Assembly: GCA_947631275.1 (NCBI GenBank)
Contig: CANRKR010000022.1
Location: 1 to 35,142, forward strand
Source of the DNA: an uncultured Akkermansia sp.
Lineage (GTDB): Bacteria; Verrucomicrobiota; Verrucomicrobiia; Verrucomicrobiales; Akkermansiaceae
Length of the DNA stretch: 35,142 bases
Direction of reading: 5' to 3'
Under the pieces are notes generated by a model, which was not told where the DNA came from, made no database searches, and saw only the letters and a program-made list of their open reading frames with translations. Position 1 is the stretch's first letter, and every line of letters starts with the position of its first letter. The position numbers and the translations under genes were made by a program. Positions 474 to 35,142 of this stretch are shown here, piece after piece.

Positions 474-1877
474 TCAACGCTGCTGACGCCAGCCGCCGCC
501 CAGCTGGGTGTAGAGCGTGGGAATGCACGCGGCGTACTGGTAGCGATAGGAGGCGAGTTGCTGCTGCGCCGGGAAGAGAAGCAGCTGAGCCTGCAATACT
601 TCGTAGTACGCGGCGATACCTGTCTTGTAACGGTCGATGGACAGCTTCACGCTCTCCTGGTAGGCCTCCACGGCGGCCTCCTGCTTCGCAATGACTTCAG
701 CGAGTTTCTGGCGATTCGTGAGAGTCGTGGAAATCTCCGCCATGGCGTTCAGCACCGTCTGCTCGTAATTCGCCTTCGCCGCGAGGAACAGAGCCTTCTT
801 GGCGCGCGTGTTGGCGCGAAGTTGACCGGCCTGAAAGATGGGCCCCGTGAGCGAAGCGCCGATGCCCCAGCCGGTGCGGTGCGGAATAATGGCGTGCCGC
901 AGGTCAGCAGACGCATAGCCGGCAGCAGAAGTGAGACTGATGCTCGGGAAGTAGGAGGATATGGCCACGCCTATATCGGCATTGGCTGCCCGCAGATCCT
1001 GCTCCGCAGCGCGAATATCCGGGCGCCGCGCCAGCACATCGGCGGGAATGCCCGCCGCCACACGGCTGGCTTCAGCAAAATCCTGCAGGCTGCCGCCGCG
1101 GGAAATGTGCCCCGGCGTGCGACCGGCCAGCACACTGAGAGTGTTCTCCAGCTCAGCTATCTGCATTTGCAGCACCGGCACGGCGGCCTCGGCGGCAGCC
1201 AGAGCTGCCTCGGCGGAAGCCGTCTGAAGTTTATCGCCGACACCGCCCTCCAGCTGATTGCGGAAGAGGTTGAGGGATTCCTGATAGCTCGCCACGGAAG
1301 CGTGGGCAATGCGCAGTTGCTCATCGAGCATCAACAGCTGCAGATAACCGCAAGCCACCTGACGCAACAAAGAAACACGCAGGTTCGCCAGCTGTTCCTG
1401 AGCAGAGAGTGCGCTCGCCGAGGCGCTCTCCACTCCCTTGCGTGTCTTGCCCCACAGGTCGAGCTCCCACGAAGCGGAGAGCGAAGCCGATCCCGGGTTG
1501 GTGGTGATACCGCCCGTCTGAGCGATTCCTGCGCCGCCCTGCTGGTTCATACCCTTGCTGGTGGAAGCGCTGTAACCTGCCCACGGAAAAAGCGGGGCGC
1601 GGGCGATGGTGACGTACTGTCTGGCCGCTTCGACATTGTGTTGCAGGGCAGCAAGGCTGCGGTTGGCATTAAACACATCGTAGAGGAGAGCGGCGAGGCG
1701 GGAGTCCTTGAGCACTTGCTGCCAGGGCAGATCTGCCATATTTCCCCGACCGAAGGAAGCGCCGCGGAACTGCGCCGGCACGGGCATCTTCGGCTTTCTC
1801 CATCGCGGACCCAGGGAGCAGGAAGTCGCCCCAAGAGCGGCGATGCTCAACAGGGCCAGGACAGTGTACCGTTTCAT
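474..1877 (-). CDS. RND efflux outer-membrane lipoprotein (OprM/NodT-type, TolC superfamily)
   Basis: Outer-membrane channel of a tripartite RND drug exporter, 467 aa. The start at 1877 gives a classic lipoprotein signal peptide, MKRYTVLALLSIAALGATSC, with the lipid-attachment Cys at residue 20. The ORF track start at 1916 would add 13 residues before it and is less likely. The mature chain shows the two-repeat outer-membrane efflux layout: SWELDLWGKTRKGVESA in the first half, and RPDIRAAEQDLRAANADIGVA followed by FPSISLTSAAGYAS in the second. It is the last gene of the marR-adaptor-permease-channel operon, 46 nt after the permease stop. No strong Shine-Dalgarno sequence precedes the chosen ATG. 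The family is clear; the substrate range cannot be read from sequence. Confidence 0.93.
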   Translation of the reverse strand: MKRYTVLALLSIAALGATSCSLGPRWRKPKMPVPAQFRGASFGRGNMADLPWQQVLKDSRLAALLYDVFNANRSLAALQHNVEAARQYVTIARAPLFPWAGYSASTSKGMNQQGGAGIAQTGGITTNPGSASLSASWELDLWGKTRKGVESASASALSAQEQLANLRVSLLRQVACGYLQLLMLDEQLRIAHASVASYQESLNLFRNQLEGGVGDKLQTASAEAALAAAEAAVPVLQMQIAELENTLSVLAGRTPGHISRGGSLQDFAEASRVAAGIPADVLARRPDIRAAEQDLRAANADIGVAISSYFPSISLTSAAGYASADLRHAIIPHRTGWGIGASLTGPIFQAGQLRANTRAKKALFLAAKANYEQTVLNAMAEISTTLTNRQKLAEVIAKQEAAVEAYQESVKLSIDRYKTGIAAYYEVLQAQLLLFPAQQQLASYRYQYAACIPTLYTQLGGGWRQQR

Positions 1878-1923
1878 AGCTGGTTTTATCATACCTTTTC
1901 GTGCAAGCTGTTGCAAGTTGATT

Positions 1924-4900
1924 TTAGTTTTGATCCTGAGAATGAGCGGCGAGATACTCGCGAGCCTCCCGTTCGTCCGGGTCTTCCCCGAGTTCGCTGA
2001 GTTTGAATTTAATGCGGAAGAGGCGCATCACAAAGACGTACGAGCACGGGATGAGGAAAACGCCCACCAACGTCGCGACTGTCATGCCTATCACCACAAC
2101 CACACCGATGGAATTGCGCGCCAGAGCTCCCGATCCGCTGGAAAGAATCAGCGGAATACAGCCCAGAATGAATGCAAGCGAGGTCATGAGGATGGGGCGC
2201 AGACGCAGGCGCGCCGCAGCCAGAGTGGCCTCCATCAGACTCTTGCCGCGCTCCATCTCAAGATTGGCGAACTCCACGATCAGGATGGCATTCTTGGCTG
2301 CGAGTCCCACGAGCATCACGAGCCCCACTTGCGCGTACAGATTCAGCTCCAGATGCCACAGGGCCAGCCCGGCATACGCTCCCAGCACCGCAACGGGCAC
2401 CGTCATGAACACCGAAATGGGCAGTGGCCATTTCTCGTACAACGCCACCAGAATGAGGAAAGCGAAGAGACCGGACATGATAAAGATCGTACCGAGACCG
2501 GTGCTGTTGCGCACTTTATTTTCCTGGAAGCTCATATCCTGGTAGTCGAAACCGACTTTGGAGGGATCCATTGTCTGGGCATAGACCTCCTCCATGGCAT
2601 CCATGAGCTGCTGGGTGGAGTACCCCGGCTTAGGCATCACATTGATCTTGGCAGCGTTGTACCCCTGGTGATGCATCACGAATTCCGTTTCGGCGATATC
2701 CTTCACATTCACGAGCACCGAGAGAGGCACGCGCTGACCATCGGCGTTCGTGACGAAAAAGCCGTCCATCTGCTGCAGGTCGGTACGATCCGCGCCCTGG
2801 GCCTGGATGTAAACCTGCCACTGCTGCCCGAAGGCATTGAAGAAATTGACGAAAGAAGAACCGTAGTAGGCGGCGAGGATGCCGTTGGCCGCGCTGATGT
2901 CCACTTTGTAGTACTGGCATTTTTCGCGGTCCAGCTCGAGGTACTTCTGCGGCGTGTCAGCCATCATCATGTCCATGCACATGGCGACTTCCGGCCGCTG
3001 GCGGGCGGCGGCTTCAAAGGTCTTCACCCGCTCGTAAAGGAACGGCACTCCCTGACCTTCCAGATCCGTCAGCACCATGGCCACGCCGTTTGCCGTGCCC
3101 ACGCCGGGGATAGCGGGGGGCACCAGCACCATGGCGGTGCCGTCCAGTCCGGCCTTCTGCACGCGGGCGGAGAGCCTCTTCTGAATTTCCTGCGCTGTTT
3201 CCGGGCGCTCGCTCCAATCCTTGAGTTCGACGAAGGCGATGCACGCGCCGGGAGTCTGCACCATGTTGAGGATATTGATTCCCACGACGGAGGTGAGATT
3301 TTTTACAACGGTGGGGTCGTAGAGAGCCTCCTCGAGCTTTTTATCCTGCTCCATAGCCACCTGCAGGGAGGTTTCGGGTTTCATGACGAGCGCGGCCATG
3401 AGGAATCCCTGATCCTCATCCGGCAGGAACGCGCCCGGCACCCGGCCCGACACAGGCTTGATCGCCGCCCACAGGAGAAGCAGCAGAGGCATGGAAATAA
3501 TGAGCTTGCGGGCAAGTCCGCCGCAGATGCGCGTGTAGATGTTCGCCGTGGCGTTGTAACACTTGTTGAACAGCCAGTGGAAGGGGCGGAAGATGCTTCT
3601 GTTCTGCGAGCTCGGTTTGAGCAGGAGCGCGCAGAGAGCCGGAGAAAGCGTCAACGCGTTGAACGCCGAGATCAACATGGAAATGGCGATCGTAATGGCG
3701 AACTGCTTGAACAGGGTGCCGGTGATACCCTCAAGCATGAGCGCCGGCAGGAATACCGCCGCCAATACGAGAGCAATGGCCACGACCGGACCGCTCACTT
3801 CCTGCATGGCAGCGAAAGCCGCCACGCGCGGCTTGAGGCCCTCGTCGATGTGGTGCTGCACCGCTTCCACCACCACGATGGCGTCATCCACCACCAACCC
3901 GATGGCGAGCACCATCCCGAGCAGGGAAATCGTGTTGAGTGTGAACCCCAGCAGGGGGAAGACGCAGAAGGTTGAGACCAATGACACCGGGACGGCGATG
4001 AGCGGAATGAGCGTGGCGCGCCAGTTTTGCAGGAACATGTACACCACCAGAGCCACCAGAATGATAGCCTCGATGAACGTGTGTTTAATCTCCTCGATGG
4101 AGTAGCGCACCGACGTCGTTGTATCCAGCGCCACGGATCCCTGGATGCCCTGAGGCATGGTCGCCGTTTTCTTCTCCAGAAGTTTTGTCACGCGATCCAC
4201 CGTCTCGATGGCGTTCGACCCCGGGGACTGGAAAATCACGACGGAGGCGGCCACCTGACCGTTTCGACGGCCGGTTGCGGAGTAATTTTCCGAACCCAGC
4301 TCGATGGTGGAAATGTCCTTCAGATAGACGATTTGATCCGCCTCCTGCCGTACGATGATATTTTCGAATTCCTCAGGATTGGTGAGGCGTCCCTGCGTGC
4401 GCACGGTGATGGTCTTCTCCTGGCCGTTGGGCACGGGATCAGCGCCGATCTTGCCGCCGGGGTTGGTCATGTTCTGCTTGGAGATAGCCGCGCGCACCTC
4501 TGCCAGAGAGATATTGAAGTGACTCATCTTGACCGTATCCAGCCAGATGCGGATAGCATAGCGTCCGGCGCCGTAAACTGCCACCTCGCCGACGCCTTCC
4601 ACGCGCTTGATTTCATCCACAAGCTTCACCTGCGCATAGTTTGCGAGATCCACGGAGTTGTAGCTTCCATCCGGGGAGGTGAGGCCGTAGAGCATGAGCG
4701 GCAGACCCGGCTGCTGACGGATCGTGATACCGGAGTTCATCACCTCGCTCGGCATCTGCGATTGCGCCTGCCCGTAGCGCATGTTCACGAGCATCTGGTC
4801 CATATCCGTGTCGGACGAGGGCTCGAAGACCACCATGAGGTTATACACGCCGTTGTTGGAAGATACGGACGTCATGTAATCCATGTGCTGCACGCCGTTG

Positions 4901-5106
4901 ACCTGGCGTTCCAGCGGGGTGCCCACGGAATCCGCCACACTCTGCGCATCCGCTCCCGGGAACATTGTTTGCAACTGGATGATGCGCGGGGTGATTTCCG
5001 GGTACTGCGAGATCGGCAGGTTGAGCAGGCACACGATGCCCAGCAGCGTCGTCACCACCGCAATCACGGTGGCAATCACCGGGTGTTTGATGAAATAGGC
5101 GCTCAT
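1924..5106 (-). CDS. RND multidrug efflux permease, HAE1 (AcrB/MexB) family
   Basis: Inner-membrane proton-drug antiporter of 1060 aa, the usual AcrB length. The N-terminus MSAYFIKHPVIATVIAVVTT is the first membrane helix of HAE1 pumps. The proton-relay acids are present in LVVDDAIVVVEAV (equivalent to the AcrB TM4 Asp pair), and the matching TM10 lysine is in GLAAKNAILIVEFA. Large periplasmic porter loops follow TM1 and TM7. A good Shine-Dalgarno (AAAGGAG) lies 7 nt before the ATG and overlaps the stop codon of the upstream adaptor gene, so the two are probably translationally coupled. With the adaptor and the channel it forms a complete pump. Export of lipophilic compounds is expected from the family; the actual substrates are unknown. 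Confidence 0.96.
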   Translation of the reverse strand: MSAYFIKHPVIATVIAVVTTLLGIVCLLNLPISQYPEITPRIIQLQTMFPGADAQSVADSVGTPLERQVNGVQHMDYMTSVSSNNGVYNLMVVFEPSSDTDMDQMLVNMRYGQAQSQMPSEVMNSGITIRQQPGLPLMLYGLTSPDGSYNSVDLANYAQVKLVDEIKRVEGVGEVAVYGAGRYAIRIWLDTVKMSHFNISLAEVRAAISKQNMTNPGGKIGADPVPNGQEKTITVRTQGRLTNPEEFENIIVRQEADQIVYLKDISTIELGSENYSATGRRNGQVAASVVIFQSPGSNAIETVDRVTKLLEKKTATMPQGIQGSVALDTTTSVRYSIEEIKHTFIEAIILVALVVYMFLQNWRATLIPLIAVPVSLVSTFCVFPLLGFTLNTISLLGMVLAIGLVVDDAIVVVEAVQHHIDEGLKPRVAAFAAMQEVSGPVVAIALVLAAVFLPALMLEGITGTLFKQFAITIAISMLISAFNALTLSPALCALLLKPSSQNRSIFRPFHWLFNKCYNATANIYTRICGGLARKLIISMPLLLLLWAAIKPVSGRVPGAFLPDEDQGFLMAALVMKPETSLQVAMEQDKKLEEALYDPTVVKNLTSVVGINILNMVQTPGACIAFVELKDWSERPETAQEIQKRLSARVQKAGLDGTAMVLVPPAIPGVGTANGVAMVLTDLEGQGVPFLYERVKTFEAAARQRPEVAMCMDMMMADTPQKYLELDREKCQYYKVDISAANGILAAYYGSSFVNFFNAFGQQWQVYIQAQGADRTDLQQMDGFFVTNADGQRVPLSVLVNVKDIAETEFVMHHQGYNAAKINVMPKPGYSTQQLMDAMEEVYAQTMDPSKVGFDYQDMSFQENKVRNSTGLGTIFIMSGLFAFLILVALYEKWPLPISVFMTVPVAVLGAYAGLALWHLELNLYAQVGLVMLVGLAAKNAILIVEFANLEMERGKSLMEATLAAARLRLRPILMTSLAFILGCIPLILSSGSGALARNSIGVVVVIGMTVATLVGVFLIPCSYVFVMRLFRIKFKLSELGEDPDEREAREYLAAHSQDQN

Positions 5107-5113
5107 GATTCTG

Positions 5114-5120
5114 CTCCTTT
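5114..5120 (-). promoter_or_regulatory. Strong Shine-Dalgarno of the RND permease
   Basis: The minus strand reads AAAGGAG, 7 nt before the permease ATG, and overlaps the TAA of the adaptor gene. It stands out because most other starts in this window lack a clear Shine-Dalgarno. Confidence 0.8.
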
Positions 5121-6492
5121 ACTGCTTCTTCGCCGTGACAGACGGCGTTGTTGTGACCGGAAGAGCGTACACAAACGGAGAGGGATTCACCGTGCCGAAG
5201 CCGCCGGAGGCCCCTGCAGCGCGCATAGCTGTGTTTGCCTGGGCATAGATGGCTGCCATCTGCCCTCCCTCCACGATCACCTGCACCTGAGTGGGGTCAT
5301 CGAAACCGAGCTCTTTGAGCGTATCTTCCAGAGGCTTCACGCGTCCCCGGATGATCTGCATCGGCATCACCGCCTTCCTGCCGTCGCCATTCGGCATTTC
5401 CAAATTCACCTCCTGCGCCGGAATCACGTCGATGCCGTACGGTGTGCCATCCTTACCCACAACGTAGATGAAGCGGTGGTTCATGGCTGACACGAGAGCA
5501 CGACTCGGCACCAGCAGGGCGCCCTTCACCGTGCCGGTGTTTGCCACCACGCGCACCGCCGCGCCGGAGCGCAACTTGAGGTTCGGGTTCGGCAGGTGTC
5601 CGATGAAATTCACGGTGCCCGTCGAGCTGTTCACAAAACTGTCCACGGCCACGACTCGACCCTCGTGCTCATAGATGCTTCCGTCTTCCAGCACCACCCG
5701 GAAGTGCGTTACCGGTGTCACCATACCCTTTCCCGGGTCGTAAGAGGGAGCCAGCACTTCGCTGAGCACCTGTTTGCCCGGCACCACGAAATCCACGCGA
5801 ATGGGGTCGATGGATGACATCGTGGTAAGCGTCGGACCTCCGGCGGTGATGAGGTCGCCGGTGGAGACGTTGGATTTGGAAGCGACGCCGGTGAAGGGAG
5901 CGCGGATGGTGCAGCGCGCCAGATTGATGCGTGCGTTCTGCAGCTGAGCTTCGGCCTGATTGACAGAAGCCTGCGCCACAGCAAGCGCGGCCTGGGTGCG
6001 GCGGCGCGCATGCAGGGCATCCGTGTAGTTCTTTTCAGAGATGGAACCGGAATCGACCAACTTTTCGTAGCGCTCGACATCTTTGGCGGCCTGGTCATCC
6101 GCTGCCTGAGCCTGCTGCACCGTAGCGCGCGCCACACTCACCGCGGCTTCCGCCTGACCCAGGGCGGCCTGATAACTTTCCGGGTCAATCTCAAAGAGCA
6201 CCTCGCCTTTCTTGCAGAGAGTGCCGTCCCAGTACTCCTGGCGCAGAAGCTTCCCCGTCACTTCAGGTTTGATGGCGGCCTCTTCCACACCCCGCAGGTG
6301 CCCGAACCACGTGCTCTCCAGCGCAACGTCCTGTTTCTGCAGGTTCATCACGCTCACGGAGAGAGGGGACATTCCGGCTGCGGCCCGGGTCTGGGCAGCA
6401 GCCTGCTGTTCATTCTTCTGATCGCATCCTGCAAGTCCGATTATCACGAGTCCTGCCACGAGGACTCCGGTTGTTCTTCTATGGGTGTTCAT
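5119..6492 (-). CDS. RND efflux periplasmic adaptor (AcrA/MexA-type membrane fusion protein)
   Basis: Periplasmic adaptor linking permease and outer-membrane channel, 457 aa. The N-terminus MNTHRRTTGVLVAGLVIIGLAGC is a lipoprotein signal with lipobox LAGC (Cys23). The HlyD-family order is visible: a first biotinyl-lipoyl half-motif around TGKLLRQEYWDGTLCKKGEVLFEID, an alpha-helical hairpin rich in Ala and Gln (about residues 105-190), then ARCTIRAPFTGVASKSNVSTGDLI, which closes the lipoyl domain before the beta-barrel. The C-terminal tail is longer than usual and Ala/Gly/Pro-rich. It begins only 3 nt after the marR stop and ends 12 nt before the permease, so it is clearly in the same operon. 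Confidence 0.95.
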   Translation of the reverse strand: MNTHRRTTGVLVAGLVIIGLAGCDQKNEQQAAAQTRAAAGMSPLSVSVMNLQKQDVALESTWFGHLRGVEEAAIKPEVTGKLLRQEYWDGTLCKKGEVLFEIDPESYQAALGQAEAAVSVARATVQQAQAADDQAAKDVERYEKLVDSGSISEKNYTDALHARRRTQAALAVAQASVNQAEAQLQNARINLARCTIRAPFTGVASKSNVSTGDLITAGGPTLTTMSSIDPIRVDFVVPGKQVLSEVLAPSYDPGKGMVTPVTHFRVVLEDGSIYEHEGRVVAVDSFVNSSTGTVNFIGHLPNPNLKLRSGAAVRVVANTGTVKGALLVPSRALVSAMNHRFIYVVGKDGTPYGIDVIPAQEVNLEMPNGDGRKAVMPMQIIRGRVKPLEDTLKELGFDDPTQVQVIVEGGQMAAIYAQANTAMRAAGASGGFGTVNPSPFVYALPVTTTPSVTAKKQ

Positions 6493-28951: not shown

Positions 28952-30394
28952 TTAAGACGCGGAGGAGCCGTGAGAAGCTCCGGCACCTCGCAGGAGATCG
29001 ACAACGTTGGCATGCTTGTTCTTCATGGCAAAGTCCAGAGCTGTTCTTTCTTCAATCGAGACATTCACGTCCGCGCCGGCTTCCAGTAAAATGTGGACGA
29101 TTTCTGCCGAACCACTTTCAGCAGCGACCATCAGAGGGGTGCGAATATCCAAAAAACCGACATTTGACTTGGCATTGACATCTGCCCCAGCAGCAAGCAA
29201 GAGCTTGACCAGATTTGTCTGCCCTGATCCGGCAGCCGCCGTGAGCGGGGTGAGTTCCTCTCCTTCGCAAGAACGATTATTGACGTCCAACCCATGATCC
29301 AATAAGCATTTCAAGATTTTTTCGTCCACACGCTTGTGTTGAACACCTCGCGCTAAGGTCCGATAAACGTGGGTGCCATTGGGATCCGCACCCAACTCCA
29401 ACATACGAGTGATGATTTCTCTACTCCATCTGTTTTTGATGGCACTCAACAGGGCTCCTCCCTTTGCGTTCGCTCCTGCCTCCAGGAGCAATTCCACAGT
29501 GGAAAAATGTCCACGGTAGGCGGCGATTTCCAACGCTGTCTTTTCGCGTTGGGAGCAACCACATATCCACCGGGGACGTATGTTAACCCATGCTCCCTGG
29601 TCTATCAGAAACTTCACGGCATCCGTGTGCCCGAAACACGCTGCATGCCACAGAGCGTCGCTCAATTCTTTTTGGGTGGGCTTTTCTGCGACAGAGGCGA
29701 GGATGAACTTGATCATGCGCAGATTTCCTCCCGCTGCGGCGGCCTCCAAAATCGTGTAGAATGGACCCGGGTCGTTCATATCCGCCCCCGCGTCCAGAAT
29801 CATCTTGAAAGAGGGCATGTCCCCACTCCAGGCCGCCTTTGTGAGAGGAGCAGAATGTCCCTTAGGAGCGCTCAGATTTGCGCCCGAATCCAGCAGCATA
29901 CGTATAATCTTCACGTTCTTTTGGCTTGCGGCCTTGCACAACGCTGTGCCGCTGGACGTCACAGTGTTCACATCCGCCCCGGCATCCAAAAGCGTCCGCA
30001 CGATGTCCATGCGGCCTCCATCCACGGCTCGCATCAGCGGAGTCAGATACCCTTTTGCATTCACATTAGCACCGGCTTTCAGCAAAAACTTGATCATGGA
30101 CAGCTTCTTTGCCTCAATCGCCGCGTCGAGTGGCGTCCGGTCGTTTCTCATGCGATTCACATCTGCCCCGTACTGCAGCAGGAGCTTGACCATGGGGATG
30201 TGACCGGATGCTGCCGCATCATGGAGAGGCATTTCGCTGTCCTCATCTTCCGGTTCATCATTCGGATCCGCTCCTGCCTCCAACAATTTCCTCGCTTTCT
30301 CGATGCCATTTTTCCCCTCGCGAGCGGCGCGGAGAAGATCCTTGAAGGCCTTCTTCTTCCCTTTTGTTTTCTGTGTCTCCTTTTGCTTTTTCAT
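28952..30394 (-). CDS. Ankyrin-repeat protein, 480 aa
   Basis: A cytoplasmic-looking protein with no signal peptide, built of about 13 ankyrin repeats after a lysine-rich start (MKKQKETQKTKGKKKAF). Repeats follow the consensus TPLxxAAxxGxxxxVxxLLxAGADVN, for example TPLMRAVDGGRMDIVRTLLDAGADVN and TPLMVAAESGSAEIVHILLEAGADVN. Two repeats are imperfect (around SVAEKPTQKELSDALWHAACFGH and NIRPRWICGCSQREKTALE). Ankyrin stacks bind protein partners; no catalytic domain is attached. It is the last gene of a same-strand locus of ankyrin genes, 66 nt after the 175-aa gene. The repeats are much more varied than those of the 1007-aa paralogue, so it is probably an older copy. Confidence 0.92.
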   Translation of the reverse strand: MKKQKETQKTKGKKKAFKDLLRAAREGKNGIEKARKLLEAGADPNDEPEDEDSEMPLHDAAASGHIPMVKLLLQYGADVNRMRNDRTPLDAAIEAKKLSMIKFLLKAGANVNAKGYLTPLMRAVDGGRMDIVRTLLDAGADVNTVTSSGTALCKAASQKNVKIIRMLLDSGANLSAPKGHSAPLTKAAWSGDMPSFKMILDAGADMNDPGPFYTILEAAAAGGNLRMIKFILASVAEKPTQKELSDALWHAACFGHTDAVKFLIDQGAWVNIRPRWICGCSQREKTALEIAAYRGHFSTVELLLEAGANAKGGALLSAIKNRWSREIITRMLELGADPNGTHVYRTLARGVQHKRVDEKILKCLLDHGLDVNNRSCEGEELTPLTAAAGSGQTNLVKLLLAAGADVNAKSNVGFLDIRTPLMVAAESGSAEIVHILLEAGADVNVSIEERTALDFAMKNKHANVVDLLRGAGASHGSSAS

Positions 30395-30460: not shown

Positions 30461-30988
30461 TCAATCACTTTGTTGGCTTTTTTTTGTATCATAATGAAGC
30501 TTTGTATAATCAGGCATAGGAAGGTCGAACGGAAGATGTTTAGGAAACATGAGATTGCCGACAAGGTTTCTTCTGGTCTCCCATTCCGGTAAATCTCCTT
30601 CCCTATTGAAAATAATGATGATTTCCTGCCACAATGTGTTTCCGGTTGGTAATTCCCTACTTAAAAGATCAACCAGCATAGACTTTTCTTCAGAATTTAA
30701 TATCCAATCTCCCTTTCCATCTCCGTTAAAATGATAGACGTATGCTGGGGACTTCATATCGATTCGAGCCACCTTGCTCGCCCCGGCATAGTTCTTGTTG
30801 TTATAGAGTTTAAAATAACAACTATTTCGTCTTTCACTTCTATTGACCTGAATTGAGATGTTGTTTTTCCGGTCAGAATAGACCTTTGCCATCTCACACA
30901 ACATAGGATACTTCATCTCAAACTGGGTCGTTAAAGCCTCAAAAAGCGAAGCAGTTACCGATTCTTTCCTGTTTTGATTCCTCCTCAT
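30461..30988 (-). CDS. Hypothetical protein, 175 aa, AT-rich
   Basis: Not recognised. Its DNA is visibly AT-richer than the surrounding genes. The protein is polar and mixed alpha/beta, with a central stretch SIQVNRSERRNSCYFKLYNNKNYAGASKVARIDMKS that looks like beta strands. It has no signal peptide, membrane helix or known motif. It starts 9 nt after the 101-aa gene and is probably co-transcribed with it and the large ankyrin gene. The position between two ankyrin genes and the odd base composition suggest a horizontally acquired module. An effector, immunity or partner protein is possible, but there is no direct evidence. Confidence 0.7.
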   Translation of the reverse strand: MRRNQNRKESVTASLFEALTTQFEMKYPMLCEMAKVYSDRKNNISIQVNRSERRNSCYFKLYNNKNYAGASKVARIDMKSPAYVYHFNGDGKGDWILNSEEKSMLVDLLSRELPTGNTLWQEIIIIFNREGDLPEWETRRNLVGNLMFPKHLPFDLPMPDYTKLHYDTKKSQQSD

Positions 30989-30997
30989 GTTTTTGGA

Positions 30998-31303
30998 TTA
31001 TGCTTCATACCTGTTGATAAAAGCGTCAAGTATGCGCTTGTCTTTATCGTTTCCTGACTCGTCGTGAAAGAAAGGTCCTCGGTGGATGAAATCACCCCAG
31101 TAACTCTTGAGACCGGAAAACGTGACAACTTTCTGATGCCTCTTATTGTCCGGGTCTGCGCCGTTGTGGACAACTACACAGTATGATTCTTCCGGTAGTT
31201 TTCGGTCGTCAAGAAACGCCTTAACAACCTCAATATCCGAATCCGAACCCCATCCTCTGTAGAATGTGTAGCGATGTCCCTTATATTCAAGTGTATTGCT
31301 CAT
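30998..31303 (-). CDS. Hypothetical protein, 101 aa
   Basis: Not recognised. A small soluble protein (MSNTLEYKGHRYTFYRGWGS...) with many aromatic and charged residues and no membrane segment. Its start codon lies inside the last codons of the 1007-aa ankyrin gene, a 17-nt overlap (31287-31303), so translation is probably coupled. It is followed 9 nt later by the 175-aa gene. The track ORF 30985-31173 in another frame is a shadow. Tight coupling to an ankyrin protein suggests the products may act together; this is inference. Confidence 0.7.
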   Translation of the reverse strand: MSNTLEYKGHRYTFYRGWGSDSDIEVVKAFLDDRKLPEESYCVVVHNGADPDNKRHQKVVTFSGLKSYWGDFIHRGPFFHDESGNDKDKRILDAFINRYEA

Positions 31304-34300
31304 TCTCGGAAATAGGTAAGAAAGTTAATGTTGACATATGCTTTACAAAAGTTCTGTGAAATTGGGAGGTTCCATTTTTCCCCCGCCCGTCAGAGGCCCC
31401 GGCTCGACGCAAGAAATGCGCGAGGGGGGGATCGACCCGCGCCACAGCAATCGTAAGCGCCGTTTTGCCGTCCGCTTCGGCATTCACATCCGCGCCGGCT
31501 TCTACGAGCAGTTTCGCAGTCTGTATGTTCCTATTGTTGGAGGCAGCGGCGATGAGAGGTGTAGCGTCTTCAGATGCTCTATTCACATCTGCGCCGGCTT
31601 CCAGCAAGAGACGGACAAGCTCCGTATTTCGTGCTCTCGCCGCGGCGATAAGAGGGGTGTAGGAAAAAGTTGAGAGATTGACATCGGCTCCGGCAGCGAG
31701 AAGCAGACGCACCCCTTCGGTGAACCCGACCTTTGCTGCGGCGATGAGTGGGGTGTTCCCATCCGCTTCATCGCTCAGGTCCGCCCCTGCTGCCAACAGA
31801 ATGCGGAGGACGTCTGTATGAGAACCTTCTGCTGCGGCGATGAGTGGAGTGGTAAAACGGGACGGGAGGTTCACATCGGCCCCGGCTTCCAACAGGAGAC
31901 GGACAAGCTCCGTATTTCCTGTTTTCGCCGCCGCTATGAGCGGTGTGTATTTCCATGTCGCTTTGTTGACATCTGCCCCGGCTTCCAGCAGGAGGCGCAC
32001 GCCATCTCCATTCGCGGCTTTCGCCGCCGCTATGAGCGGTGTGTATTTCCATGTCGCCTTGTTGACGTCTGCCCCGGCGTCCAGCAAGATACGCGCGATC
32101 GGAACGAATTGTTCATTTGCGTACCTGGCTCCAGCGGAGAGCGGGGTGTAATAATCTCTTGCTTCGGCGTTTACATCCGCCCCATGGTCGAGGAGGAAAC
32201 GGACGCTCTCCACGCAGCCTTCCCACGCTGCCGCTATGAGCGGTGTACGGGCAGCCTTCGCTCCATGGACGTCCGCTCCTCTGTCGATGAGGTGTTGCAT
32301 GAGTTCCGTATCCCCGATACGAGCCGCAAGCCCAAGAGGAGTGTCATATTCGTTAGCGGCAAGGTTAATCTCTGCCCCGGCGTCGAGCAGAAGGTCGATG
32401 ATGTCCCATCGCTCGGTTTTGATGGCCAAGGATAGTGGAGTCTCTTCGTCATGGTCGTATATGCGAGACCATCGCAAAAAGTTGATTCTGTCTTGTCTCT
32501 CGGCTTTGATGAACAAAGATATGAAAGTCTCATCCCTTTTTAGCCGTAGAAACCTATGCCACCTACTCCAACGACACATTTGGGGACAATCGATCTCTGC
32601 TCCGGCTTCCAGCAACTGCCGGATGATATCGACATTCCCTGCATAGACAGCGGAGCGCAGTGCTCCCTCGAGATCCAGGCGTTTCTCGTCCGCCTCGGCA
32701 ACCTTGATGAGCGTCTGCACAACATCTGTATGCCCCCGCAATGCCGCGACACTCAGGGCTGTGCGCGGACCGTAGCCGTACCATCCATCGCGCGGACCGC
32801 CGTTGCACCCATCGTACCATCCATCGCCCACAAAGTCCACCACATCCGCCCCGGCATCCAGGAGCAGCTTCACGACGTCAGCACGACCTGCCTGAGCGGC
32901 GATATAGAGAGGGGATCGAAAGAAAGACTTCTCCTCTTTATTCGTCAATTTTCTCAGAGCACCTGCGTCTATCAGCTGCCTGATTTGCTCCGGTGTGCTG
33001 TTCTCGTTTTCAATGGCTTCGTAAAGCCTCACGCGGAGTTTATCAAGTGAGTTGCTCTCCTCCCATGTATTGTACGTATATTTGGGGAGTTGGTCGATGG
33101 CTCCGGCGCGCCGAAGACGGTGAGCAAGGGAGAGATTATTACGTCCTAACGCAGCCATGAGTGCGGTTCTACCGCTTCCGCATGCTACGGCGGTGACGTC
33201 TGCGCCAGCTGCGAAAAGCATACTGATGATCTTCGTTTTTCCTCCCTCAACAGCAGCGGCAAACGGAGTTCTATGGAAGGACGAGAGGTTTACATTCGCA
33301 CCGGCATTCAGGAGCAGTCGCACCCCTTCCGTAAATCCTGCCTGAGCGGCAGCGGTGAGCGGGGTATCCTCGGCGTCGGCTCCTACGTTCACGTCCGCAC
33401 CTGCTGCCAACAGAATGCGGAGGACGTCTGTATGAGAACGTTCCGCGGCAGCGGTGAGCGGGGTGTCCTCGGCATCGGCTCCTACGTTCACATCCGCACC
33501 TGCTGCCAACAGAATGCGGAGGACGTCTGTATGAGAACCTTCTGCTGCGGCGATGAGTGGGGTGGTAAAACGGGACGGGAGGTTCACATCGGCCCCGGCA
33601 TCAAGGAGCAGACGCACCCCTTCCGTGAATCCTGCCCGCGCGGCAGCGGTGAGCGGGGTGTCCTCGGCATCGGCTCCGGCATTCACATTCGCCCCACGGT
33701 CAAGGAGAAAACGGAGGCTCTCTACGCAGCCTTCCTTCGCTGCCACGATGAGCGGTGTGGTGTAGTACGTCGCACCATTGACGTCCGCCCCTCTGTCGAT
33801 GAGGTGTTGCATGAGTTCCAAGTCTCCCGTAAGCGCCGCAAGGCTCAGAGGAGTAAACCCCTCCGTTTTGCAGTTGATGTCCGCCCCGGTGTCCAGCAAC
33901 AGGTCGATGATGTCCCCCCGTTCCATCATCACGGCCAGCGACAACAGAGAGAGTGTTCTATACTCCTCGCTGTTTGGACGTATGTAGACCCGTATTAGAA
34001 TATCTGTATTGACGTTGGCTCCGGCAGCCAGTAGCGTACGGACGATATGGGCATGCCCCCCATAAATGGCGTATGCCAGTGCCACTTCCGGCCGCATGCG
34101 TTTCTCGCCTTCGCCGGACTCCAGCAGCACCTCCACGATATCGGCACGACCTCCCTCTGCAGCAAAATAGAGTGGAGGAACTCGATCATCCCGGTCGTCC
34201 AATAGAGCGCCTTCGGCGATCAGCTGCTTGATTTGCTCCGGCGTGCTGTTCTTGTCCCAAATGGCTTTGTAAAGCCTCATTCGGAGTTCTTCTGTGTTTT

Positions 34301-34310
34301 TCTTTTTCAT
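31287..34310 (-). CDS. Large ankyrin-repeat protein, 1007 aa, apparent fusion of two ankyrin proteins
   Basis: Over 25 ankyrin repeats with no signal peptide or catalytic domain. The chain is two homologous halves. Each begins with the same cap (LRMRLYKAIWDKNSTPEQIKQ near residue 9 and LRVRLYEAIENENSTPEQIRQ near 425) and each ends with the same kind of cap (ALMAALGRNNLSLAHRLRRAGA at about 383-404; ALTIAVARVDPPLAHFLRRAGA near 970). Middle parts also align (ELMQHLIDRGADVNGA and ELMQHLIDRGADVHGA). So two genes like its neighbours were probably joined. A 31-residue non-repeat tail follows the last cap. Repeats 7-10 are nearly identical in DNA, which points to recent expansion. It heads a three-gene operon with the 101-aa and 175-aa genes. 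Confidence 0.93.
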   Translation of the reverse strand: MKKKNTEELRMRLYKAIWDKNSTPEQIKQLIAEGALLDDRDDRVPPLYFAAEGGRADIVEVLLESGEGEKRMRPEVALAYAIYGGHAHIVRTLLAAGANVNTDILIRVYIRPNSEEYRTLSLLSLAVMMERGDIIDLLLDTGADINCKTEGFTPLSLAALTGDLELMQHLIDRGADVNGATYYTTPLIVAAKEGCVESLRFLLDRGANVNAGADAEDTPLTAAARAGFTEGVRLLLDAGADVNLPSRFTTPLIAAAEGSHTDVLRILLAAGADVNVGADAEDTPLTAAAERSHTDVLRILLAAGADVNVGADAEDTPLTAAAQAGFTEGVRLLLNAGANVNLSSFHRTPFAAAVEGGKTKIISMLFAAGADVTAVACGSGRTALMAALGRNNLSLAHRLRRAGAIDQLPKYTYNTWEESNSLDKLRVRLYEAIENENSTPEQIRQLIDAGALRKLTNKEEKSFFRSPLYIAAQAGRADVVKLLLDAGADVVDFVGDGWYDGCNGGPRDGWYGYGPRTALSVAALRGHTDVVQTLIKVAEADEKRLDLEGALRSAVYAGNVDIIRQLLEAGAEIDCPQMCRWSRWHRFLRLKRDETFISLFIKAERQDRINFLRWSRIYDHDEETPLSLAIKTERWDIIDLLLDAGAEINLAANEYDTPLGLAARIGDTELMQHLIDRGADVHGAKAARTPLIAAAWEGCVESVRFLLDHGADVNAEARDYYTPLSAGARYANEQFVPIARILLDAGADVNKATWKYTPLIAAAKAANGDGVRLLLEAGADVNKATWKYTPLIAAAKTGNTELVRLLLEAGADVNLPSRFTTPLIAAAEGSHTDVLRILLAAGADLSDEADGNTPLIAAAKVGFTEGVRLLLAAGADVNLSTFSYTPLIAAARARNTELVRLLLEAGADVNRASEDATPLIAAASNNRNIQTAKLLVEAGADVNAEADGKTALTIAVARVDPPLAHFLRRAGASDGRGKNGTSQFHRTFVKHMSTLTFLPISENEQYT
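31786..31886. repeat. 101-nt near-identical block, copy 1 (second half of the ankyrin fusion)
   Basis: This 101-nt block matches 33499-33599 with a single mismatch (A versus G in GAGTGGAGTGG). Both copies encode the repeat NLPSRFTTPLIAAAEGSHTD and what follows it. The rest of the two halves is far more diverged. Confidence 0.85.
33041..33098. other. Junction between the two ankyrin halves
   Basis: About 19 codons (residues 405-424, IDQLPKYTYNTWEESNSLDK) with no ankyrin pattern join the C-terminal cap of the first half to the N-terminal cap of the second. This is the likely fusion seam, where a stop codon and intergenic DNA were lost. Confidence 0.55.
33351..33538. repeat. Tandem 99-bp duplication of one ankyrin repeat
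   Basis: Positions 33351-33439 and 33450-33538 differ at only 3 of 89 positions and are exactly 99 bp (33 codons, one ankyrin repeat) apart. They encode GADAEDTPLTAAA...SHTDVLRILLAAGADVNV twice. The in-frame unit length keeps the reading frame after expansion or contraction. Confidence 0.85.
33499..33599. repeat. 101-nt near-identical block, copy 2 (first half of the ankyrin fusion)
   Basis: Partner of 31786-31886, same orientation, 1 mismatch. It overlaps the second unit of the 99-bp tandem duplication. Confidence 0.85.
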
Positions 34311-34518
34311 GGTAAAAAATAGTTGGTTGACTTATTTTGTCGTGTAGGAAACGAGAGGAAGGGGTACAGTGTATCTTCCGATTGGATGAGCGTACCGATT
34401 TCGTCCATCATCCCACCTGGTGCGTGATGAGGACCAGCATTACTCCTAGTCCTCAGAGGAAACGCATTTGAGAGAAGTTCATCAACGAAGAGAATGTTCT
34501 TATGGATTGATACCATCG

Positions 34519-34698: not shown

Positions 34699-35142
34699 TC
34701 ATAGGATTTTCTTCTGTTTATGGGCGTCCCCGGCTTGGCGCAGGAAGAGCGCATGGGAAAGATCGCCCCGCGCCACAGCAATCGAGAGTGCCGTCTGACC
34801 GTCCATTTCGGCGTCTAGGTCCGCTCCGGCTTCCAAGAGTAGCTCCACCATAATATGTGATAGGTACCCGTCGTTGGAAACTGCGGCGATGAGAGGGGTA
34901 AGGTTTCCACCCGCCTTGTTCACATCCGCGCCCGCTTCCAACAGGAGACGAACGGACTTCGGATTATCCGTCTTTGCGGCGGCAATAAGCGGCGTGTTCC
35001 CCCCTATCGCTTTGTTGACGTCCGCTCCGGCATTGAGCAGTAGCTTGATGATCTCCTCTCTCCAACTGCTCGCTGCTGCGATGAGGGCTGTGCCGTAATC
35101 TCCTGTCTGAGCTTGTGCATTGACATCCGCTCCGGCTTCCAG
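34699..35142 (-). CDS. Ankyrin-repeat protein, C-terminal part (gene continues past the right edge)
   Basis: The ORF track lists only 80 aa from an internal TTG, but the frame is open to the window edge and encodes at least 147 residues. Four more or less complete repeats can be read (LEAGADVNAQAQ..., LLLNAGADVNKAIGGNTPLIAAA, LLLEAGADVNKAGGNLTPLIAA, LLLEAGADLDAEMDGQTALSIA). The end, ALSIAVARGDLSHALFLRQAG, is the same cap as in both halves of the 1007-aa protein, so this is a close paralogue and a plausible model of an unfused ancestor. It is followed by the hairpin at 34651. The start lies outside the window. Confidence 0.9.
   Translation of the reverse strand: MEAGADVNAQAQTGDYGTALIAAASSWREEIIKLLLNAGADVNKAIGGNTPLIAAAKTDNPKSVRLLLEAGADVNKAGGNLTPLIAAVSNDGYLSHIMVELLLEAGADLDAEMDGQTALSIAVARGDLSHALFLRQAGDAHKQKKIL

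What the first reader, a model, noticed from the sequence alone, without database searches (positions are those of the whole stretch)
31287..34310. Ankyrin protein that is an end-to-end fusion of two complete paralogues
Both the start cap (LYKAIWDKNSTPEQIKQ / LYEAIENENSTPEQIRQ) and the end cap (LAHRLRRAGA / LAHFLRRAGA) occur twice, and the neighbouring gene at the right edge ends with the same cap. This indicates tandem gene duplication followed by loss of a stop, giving one 1007-aa protein. It is a clear snapshot of how giant repeat proteins arise.
Basis: seen in the sequence. Interest (0 to 1): 0.7.

Follow-up and report, generated by a model that had tools for sequence, protein, structure and literature searches.

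The report
Ankyrin protein fused from two neighbours
In a gut Akkermansia, two neighbouring ankyrin-repeat genes that are still separate in sister species have run together into one 1007-residue protein, and related loci preserve the steps before and after, so one can see how a long repeat protein was built.

Summary
ORF window:31287-34310(-) encodes 1007 aa with two complete capped ankyrin units (N-cap/C-cap, N-cap/C-cap). The caps occur only in this ankyrin family. In seven tandem pairs from six related Akkermansia genomes (one pair cut by a contig end) the two units are separate neighbouring genes. Half 1 groups with one of them and half 2 with the other; an AU test rejects the halves as sister copies (p=2.7e-7). 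So the duplication is old and the fusion is the later event.

Junctions show the steps. State A: gene 1 stop, 79-82-nt spacer, gene 2 out of frame. State B: the stop is bypassed by frameshift, gene 1 translates the spacer, and one TAA remains 21 nt before an in-frame gene 2. State C (window): the state-B tail is kept and a net 102-nt in-frame shortening removes the TAA, spacer and gene-2 start. The fused gene has also slipped past its own final stop into the next spacer.

At least two further fusions (L011, L015) arose in the same family, plus two older double-unit proteins. AlphaFold gives two solenoids joined by a disordered linker. Fission is excluded; assembly error is unlikely but reads are missing. 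Function is inferred only.

The parts
31287..34310 (-). fused two-unit ankyrin ORF, 1007 aa
33096..34310 (-). unit 1 (residues 1-405), class-1 ankyrin unit, orthologue of L014 8097-9479
   Evidence: 84.5% DNA identity to g1; class-1 clade 100/99
34194..34280 (-). N-cap 1 (residues 11-39)
   Evidence: HMM 66 bits
33096..33176 (-). C-cap 1 (residues 379-405)
   Evidence: HMM 48 bits
33033..33095 (-). linker between the units (residues 406-426)
   Evidence: residues 406-421 pLDDT <50; junction alignment
33042..33074 (-). 33-nt stretch of the linker (YNTWEESNSLD) with no match in any fetched locus; stands where unfused relatives have gene-1 tail, stop, spacer and gene-2 start
31395..33032 (-). unit 2 (residues 427-972), class-2 ankyrin unit, orthologue of L014 9501-10991
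   Evidence: 84.8% DNA identity to g2; class-2 clade 100/99
32946..33032 (-). N-cap 2 (residues 427-455)
   Evidence: HMM 66 bits
31641..31868 (-). about two ankyrin repeats inside unit 2 (residues 815-890) of class-1 origin
   Evidence: best DNA match is the class-1 gene L053 6180, 95-99% in the 3' part
31395..31472 (-). C-cap 2 (residues 947-972)
   Evidence: HMM 51 bits
31290..31394 (-). C-terminal tail (residues 973-1007) that is translated former spacer; overlaps the next gene by 17 nt
   Evidence: L052 has a stop in another frame followed by the homologous untranslated spacer
34699..35142 (-). upstream neighbour of the same family, cut by the contig end
   Evidence: C-cap 50 bits
30998..31303 (-). 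downstream 101-aa gene, syntenic in L052 (86% identity); possible next partner
28952..30394 (-). 480-aa ankyrin gene without the family N-cap; syntenic flank marker in L017 and L052

Best explanation
The gene is a lineage-specific fusion of two adjacent, long-diverged ankyrin genes (class 1 then class 2) of a clade-restricted Akkermansia family. Shown by comparison: the ancestral arrangement had a stop and a 79-82-nt spacer with gene 2 out of frame; a frameshift just after the C-cap bypassed the stop, so gene 1 translated the spacer up to a TAA 21 nt before an in-frame gene 2; a later net loss of 102 nt (34 codons) removed that TAA, the rest of the spacer and the gene-2 start. Inferred: the tail after the C-cap is structurally idle, so frameshifts there are tolerated and act as a ratchet towards fusion in tightly packed same-strand arrays. 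Inferred: the product is a cytosolic protein of two separately capped ankyrin solenoids on a flexible linker, which ties together in one chain the two binding surfaces that the separate proteins present in relatives (my estimate for this functional part alone is about 0.4).
For: Unfused pairs in relatives. Junction series A, B, C, with the state-B tail sequence (AACTCCCCAAATATACGT) shared by the window. Halves placed with different genes in the tree, AU p=2.7e-7 against sister halves. Synteny: the pair is followed by p101 and p480 homologues in L052 and by the p480 homologue further on in L017. Both halves diverge alike from their unfused orthologues, dN/dS 0.37-0.42. The 3' end shows the same stop bypass into the next spacer. 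Analogous fusions in L015 10204-13257, with the old ATG kept inside, and L011 1272-4196. AlphaFold: two helical-repeat regions, residues about 2-401 and 420-969, linker pLDDT <50, pTM 0.45.
Against: The fused form is seen in one metagenome-assembled genome only and no reads could be checked. The 33-nt linker has no identified source, so the last step may be several events rather than one deletion. dN/dS covers the time before fusion as well, so it does not show selection on the fused state. No expression, secretion or binding data exist.
Confidence: 0.9

Rival explanations
1. Fission: the long protein is ancestral and the two-gene form arose by gaining a stop and a start.
For: The fused ORF is a coherent frame and gene fission does occur.
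Against: Three state-A pairs and four state-B loci share a homologous spacer and gene-2 leader (TATTTCTTAC-ATG type), which the fused gene would have had to generate; state-A pairs lie outside both halves' nearest clades.
Confidence: 0.02
2. Assembly chimera: short-read assembly joined two paralogues.
For: Draft MAG, repeat-rich family, only one example of this exact fusion.
Against: The linker is unique DNA rather than a shared k-mer; both halves carry their own comparable divergence; the junction keeps frame; double-unit proteins of the same family occur in several independent MAGs (L012/L058/L059; L014/L017/L018).
Confidence: 0.06
3. Internal duplication: one gene doubled within itself, as usually proposed for long repeat proteins.
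For: Ankyrin repeats commonly expand by internal duplication of several domains (PMC1553488); the other double gene L011 does have halves 92.5% identical.
Against: For the window gene the halves group with different neighbouring genes.
Confidence: 0.02
4. Decay: the long frame is a by-product of a degenerating gene array, with no function of its own.
For: Stops are being lost at both ends of unit 2, arrays differ between species, and the family is patchy.
Against: No stop in 1007 codons, dN/dS about 0.4, and an older double-unit protein kept with dN/dS 0.3-0.4 in different species (L012 vs L058).
Confidence: 0.15

Closest known systems
Ankyrin-repeat proteins (Pfam PF00023/PF12796); ankyrin-1 and designed ankyrin proteins as nearest solved structures
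   Same: Canonical ankyrin repeats over both units; best PDB matches are ankyrin-1/2 and DARPin constructs
   Different: Two capped solenoids in one chain with a predicted disordered linker, from a family whose N-cap was found in 8 of 76 Akkermansia genomes and in 1 of 16 genera sampled in the taxonomic family
Repeat-protein growth by internal tandem duplication (Bjorklund et al. 2006, PMC1553488)
   Same: Long repeat proteins arise by adding several repeats at once
   Different: Here a whole neighbouring capped protein is appended by stop loss, rather than repeats duplicated in the middle
Rigid designed DARPin-DARPin fusions (DD_D12 series, PDB 5le2-5lem)
   Same: Two ankyrin units in one chain
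   Different: Those are engineered with stiff shared helices (own knowledge); here the linker is predicted disordered

Membership tests
Ankyrin-repeat proteins | Matches to ankyrin repeat profiles above the curated cut-off | tested here: met
   PF00023 431 bits, PF12796 437 bits
Fusion of adjacent paralogous genes | Each half orthologous to a separate neighbouring gene in relatives | tested here: met
Fusion of adjacent paralogous genes | Unfused state is ancestral (outgroups unfused) | tested here: met
   Seven unfused pairs, three of them with state-A spacers, one pair cut by a contig end
Fusion of adjacent paralogous genes | Fusion present in more than one individual or assembly | tested here: inconclusive
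   Only the window genome has this exact fusion; one genome per species is held; the linker was not found in viral contigs
Recent tandem duplication | The two halves are each other's closest relatives | tested here: not met
   AU p=2.7e-7 against sister halves
Secreted or injected ankyrin effectors of bacteria | Export signal and delivery to a host cell | not testable with these tools
   The N-terminus (MKKKNTEELRMRLYKAI) shows no evident signal peptide by eye; no assay available

The most novel reading that the evidence does not exclude
In this Akkermansia clade, concatenation of whole capped ankyrin proteins is a recurrent, ratchet-like process: frameshifts in the idle C-terminal tail erase stops, spacers become translated, and neighbouring units merge, giving at least three separate recent fusions, one or two older ones and visible intermediates, while the gene arrays also move between species.
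Probability: 0.5. Interest if true: 0.6.

Novelty: new member of a known kind. Interest (0 to 1): 0.5.

Why it matters
Fusion of neighbouring paralogues is an accepted route to long repeat proteins, but intermediates are seldom caught. Here one locus gives the before state, an in-frame state with a single stop left, and the fused state. Sister fusions show the old start codon kept, weakened or deleted, and older double proteins show a degraded internal cap. This makes the order of events, and the question whether fusion is selected or merely tolerated, testable in one small clade.

Tried and rejected
The first rpoB tree picked wrong frames for two genomes, one retry failed, and it was redone. 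The all-family protein alignment A2 stacked every single gene on half 2 and was not used for folding; A3, with state-B pairs translated end to end reading their TAA as a residue, was used instead. The junction linker was not found in viral contigs. Literature searches found no report of this family or of ankyrin gene fusion in Akkermansia; one Akkermansia paper mentions ankyrin genes in the genus ancestor (PMC10540074). Fission, recent duplication and internal doubling were considered and rejected for the window gene. The exact base of the state-A to state-B frameshift depends on the alignment; only the net frame change is firm.

Full report
Setting. The window is the whole of contig C22 of a 2.1-Mb draft genome. 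Its nearest relatives in GTDB species genomes are uncultured Akkermansia from 'Lapin' samples. The finding is ORF 31287-34310 on the minus strand, 1007 aa, made of ankyrin repeats.

The observation. Cap-specific HMMs find N-cap, C-cap, N-cap, C-cap at residues 11-39, 379-405, 427-455 and 947-972. Nearly all other family members have one of each and are 400-530 aa long, and ankyrin ORFs outside the family have no N-cap. Within the protein the N-caps match at 17 of 27 residues against at most 8 elsewhere, and the C-caps at 15 against at most 10. The two halves align end to end at 43% identity, E=3e-104. The cap similarity is therefore well above that of random ankyrin repeats, more clearly so for the N-cap.

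The unfused version exists. L014, L015 and L017 carry two neighbouring genes, 460-462 aa and 496-533 aa, where the window has one ORF; L016 carries gene 1 and then the contig ends. L052, L053 and an additional pair in L015 (3371-5521/5601-7073) carry a more divergent class-1/class-2 pair. In L052 the pair is followed by homologues of the window's 101-aa gene (86% identity) and 480-aa gene (82%), so the locus is the same.

Each half belongs to a different gene. At the DNA level unit 1 is nearest to gene 1 (84.5%) and unit 2 to gene 2 (84.8%). In a protein tree of 38 units, unit 1 lies in the class-1 clade next to gene 1 and unit 2 in the class-2 clade next to gene 2, both clades at 100/99 support. 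Forcing the two halves together costs 188 log units, AU p=2.7e-7. The duplication is therefore old and fusion is a later event in the window's lineage.

How the stop was lost. Aligned junctions form a series. State A (L052, L053, first pair of L015): gene 1 ends shortly after the C-cap at a TGA, then 80, 82 or 79 nt of spacer, with gene 2 in another frame. State B (L014, L015, L017, and L016 as far as it goes): the frame after the C-cap differs, the old TGA is no longer read, gene 1 continues through the homologous spacer for about 25 codons to a TAA, and 21 nt later comes gene 2 in the same frame. State C, the window: the tail sequence of state B (AACTCCCCAAATATACGT) is present, then 33 nt without a known source, then gene 2 from just after its start; the stretch is 102 nt shorter than in state B, exactly 34 codons. 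Fission would need the fused gene to recreate a spacer and leader homologous to those of state A, and is rejected. The single-base position of the A-to-B frameshift is alignment dependent.

A second erasure at the 3' end. In L052 gene 2 ends with ATEALFP and a stop, followed by an untranslated spacer. In the window an indel shifts the frame, the stop is bypassed and the homologous spacer is translated, ending in a stop that overlaps the next gene by 17 nt. The fused gene is thus in a state-B-like position towards its next neighbour.

The process recurs. L015 10204-13257 (1017 aa) joins an 11495-type unit to a unit sister to the single gene L014 6574-7962. Compared with the unfused boundary at the end of L053 11495-12988, two bases are inserted at the TGA and one is lost in the leader, and the old ATG remains as an internal methionine. 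L011 1272-4196 (974 aa, same genome as the window) joins two units that are sisters (99/92; 92.5% DNA identity); its leader is read through and the old ATG position reads GTG. Two older double proteins (L014 12619-15243 with L017 and L018; L012 7828-10434 with L058 and L059) keep the internal C-cap but have a degraded second N-cap. Different partners and linkers indicate at least three separate recent fusions; whether the two older ones share an origin is not settled.

Mosaic history. Residues 815-890 of unit 2 are of class-1 origin, nearest to L053 6180-7385 (95-99% over part), and the last 80 residues are nearest to the L015 5601 gene rather than to gene 2. Units recombine with each other as well as fuse. 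Some arrays are far more alike between species than rpoB: gene 1 is 100% identical over 1245 nt between L014 and L015, and 7.2 kb of L014 and L017 are 95% identical, whereas rpoB of the window species is only 74-83% identical to that of the other species in its part of the genus and the rpoB tree places these species on long separate branches. Horizontal transfer is the likely cause; mis-binning cannot be excluded for the short contigs.

What it probably does. AlphaFold2 with five sequences gives helical repeats over residues 2-401 and 420-969 with pLDDT mostly 70-90, and a linker (406-421) and tail (976-1007) below 50, with pTM 0.45: two solenoids whose mutual orientation is not fixed. The N-cap of unit 2 presumably stops it from stacking on unit 1. 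By eye there is no signal peptide. The most likely role is a cytosolic binding scaffold that now carries in one chain two binding surfaces which relatives make as two proteins from adjacent genes; this is inference from fold and gene order. dN/dS of 0.37-0.42 against the unfused orthologues shows the units are constrained but does not isolate the time after fusion.

Limits. The fusion is seen in one draft genome. Against a chimera: unique linker DNA, equal divergence of both halves, kept frame, and double-unit relatives in several independent assemblies. Reads were not available.

Verdict. A real gene fusion with unusually well-preserved intermediates, in a clade-restricted ankyrin family (8 of 76 Akkermansia genomes; 1 of 16 sampled genera). 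The kind of event is known; the value lies in the series and its recurrence.

Noticed in passing
L014 8097-15301, L015 7223-9886, L017 8001-15249: Ankyrin arrays 88-100% identical between Akkermansia species with much more divergent rpoB; suggests horizontal transfer of ankyrin clusters (mis-binning possible for short contigs).
   Followed up: partly
window 34311-34345 and upstream of most family genes: A conserved 35-nt leader (ACACGACAARATAAATCAGACAACTATTTYTTACC-ATG), without an evident Shine-Dalgarno sequence, directly precedes many family start codons; a second leader type (GACAACCAAACGAA-ATG) precedes others.
   Followed up: partly
L011 1272-4196: A second double-unit ankyrin gene in the same genome whose halves are 92.5% identical, a better case of fresh duplication plus fusion than the window gene.
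   Followed up: partly
window 30461-31303: Two small genes (175 aa, 101 aa) without Pfam or NCBIfam match, conserved beside ankyrin arrays in several relatives (175 aa: L014 79%, L053 49%; 101 aa: L052 86%).
   Followed up: partly
genus-wide: The capped family is absent from close sisters of carriers (G069/G073 next to G064, G066 next to G074), a patchy distribution.
   Followed up: no
window 474-6492: A complete RND efflux operon (outer membrane channel, permease, periplasmic adaptor), ordinary.
   Followed up: no
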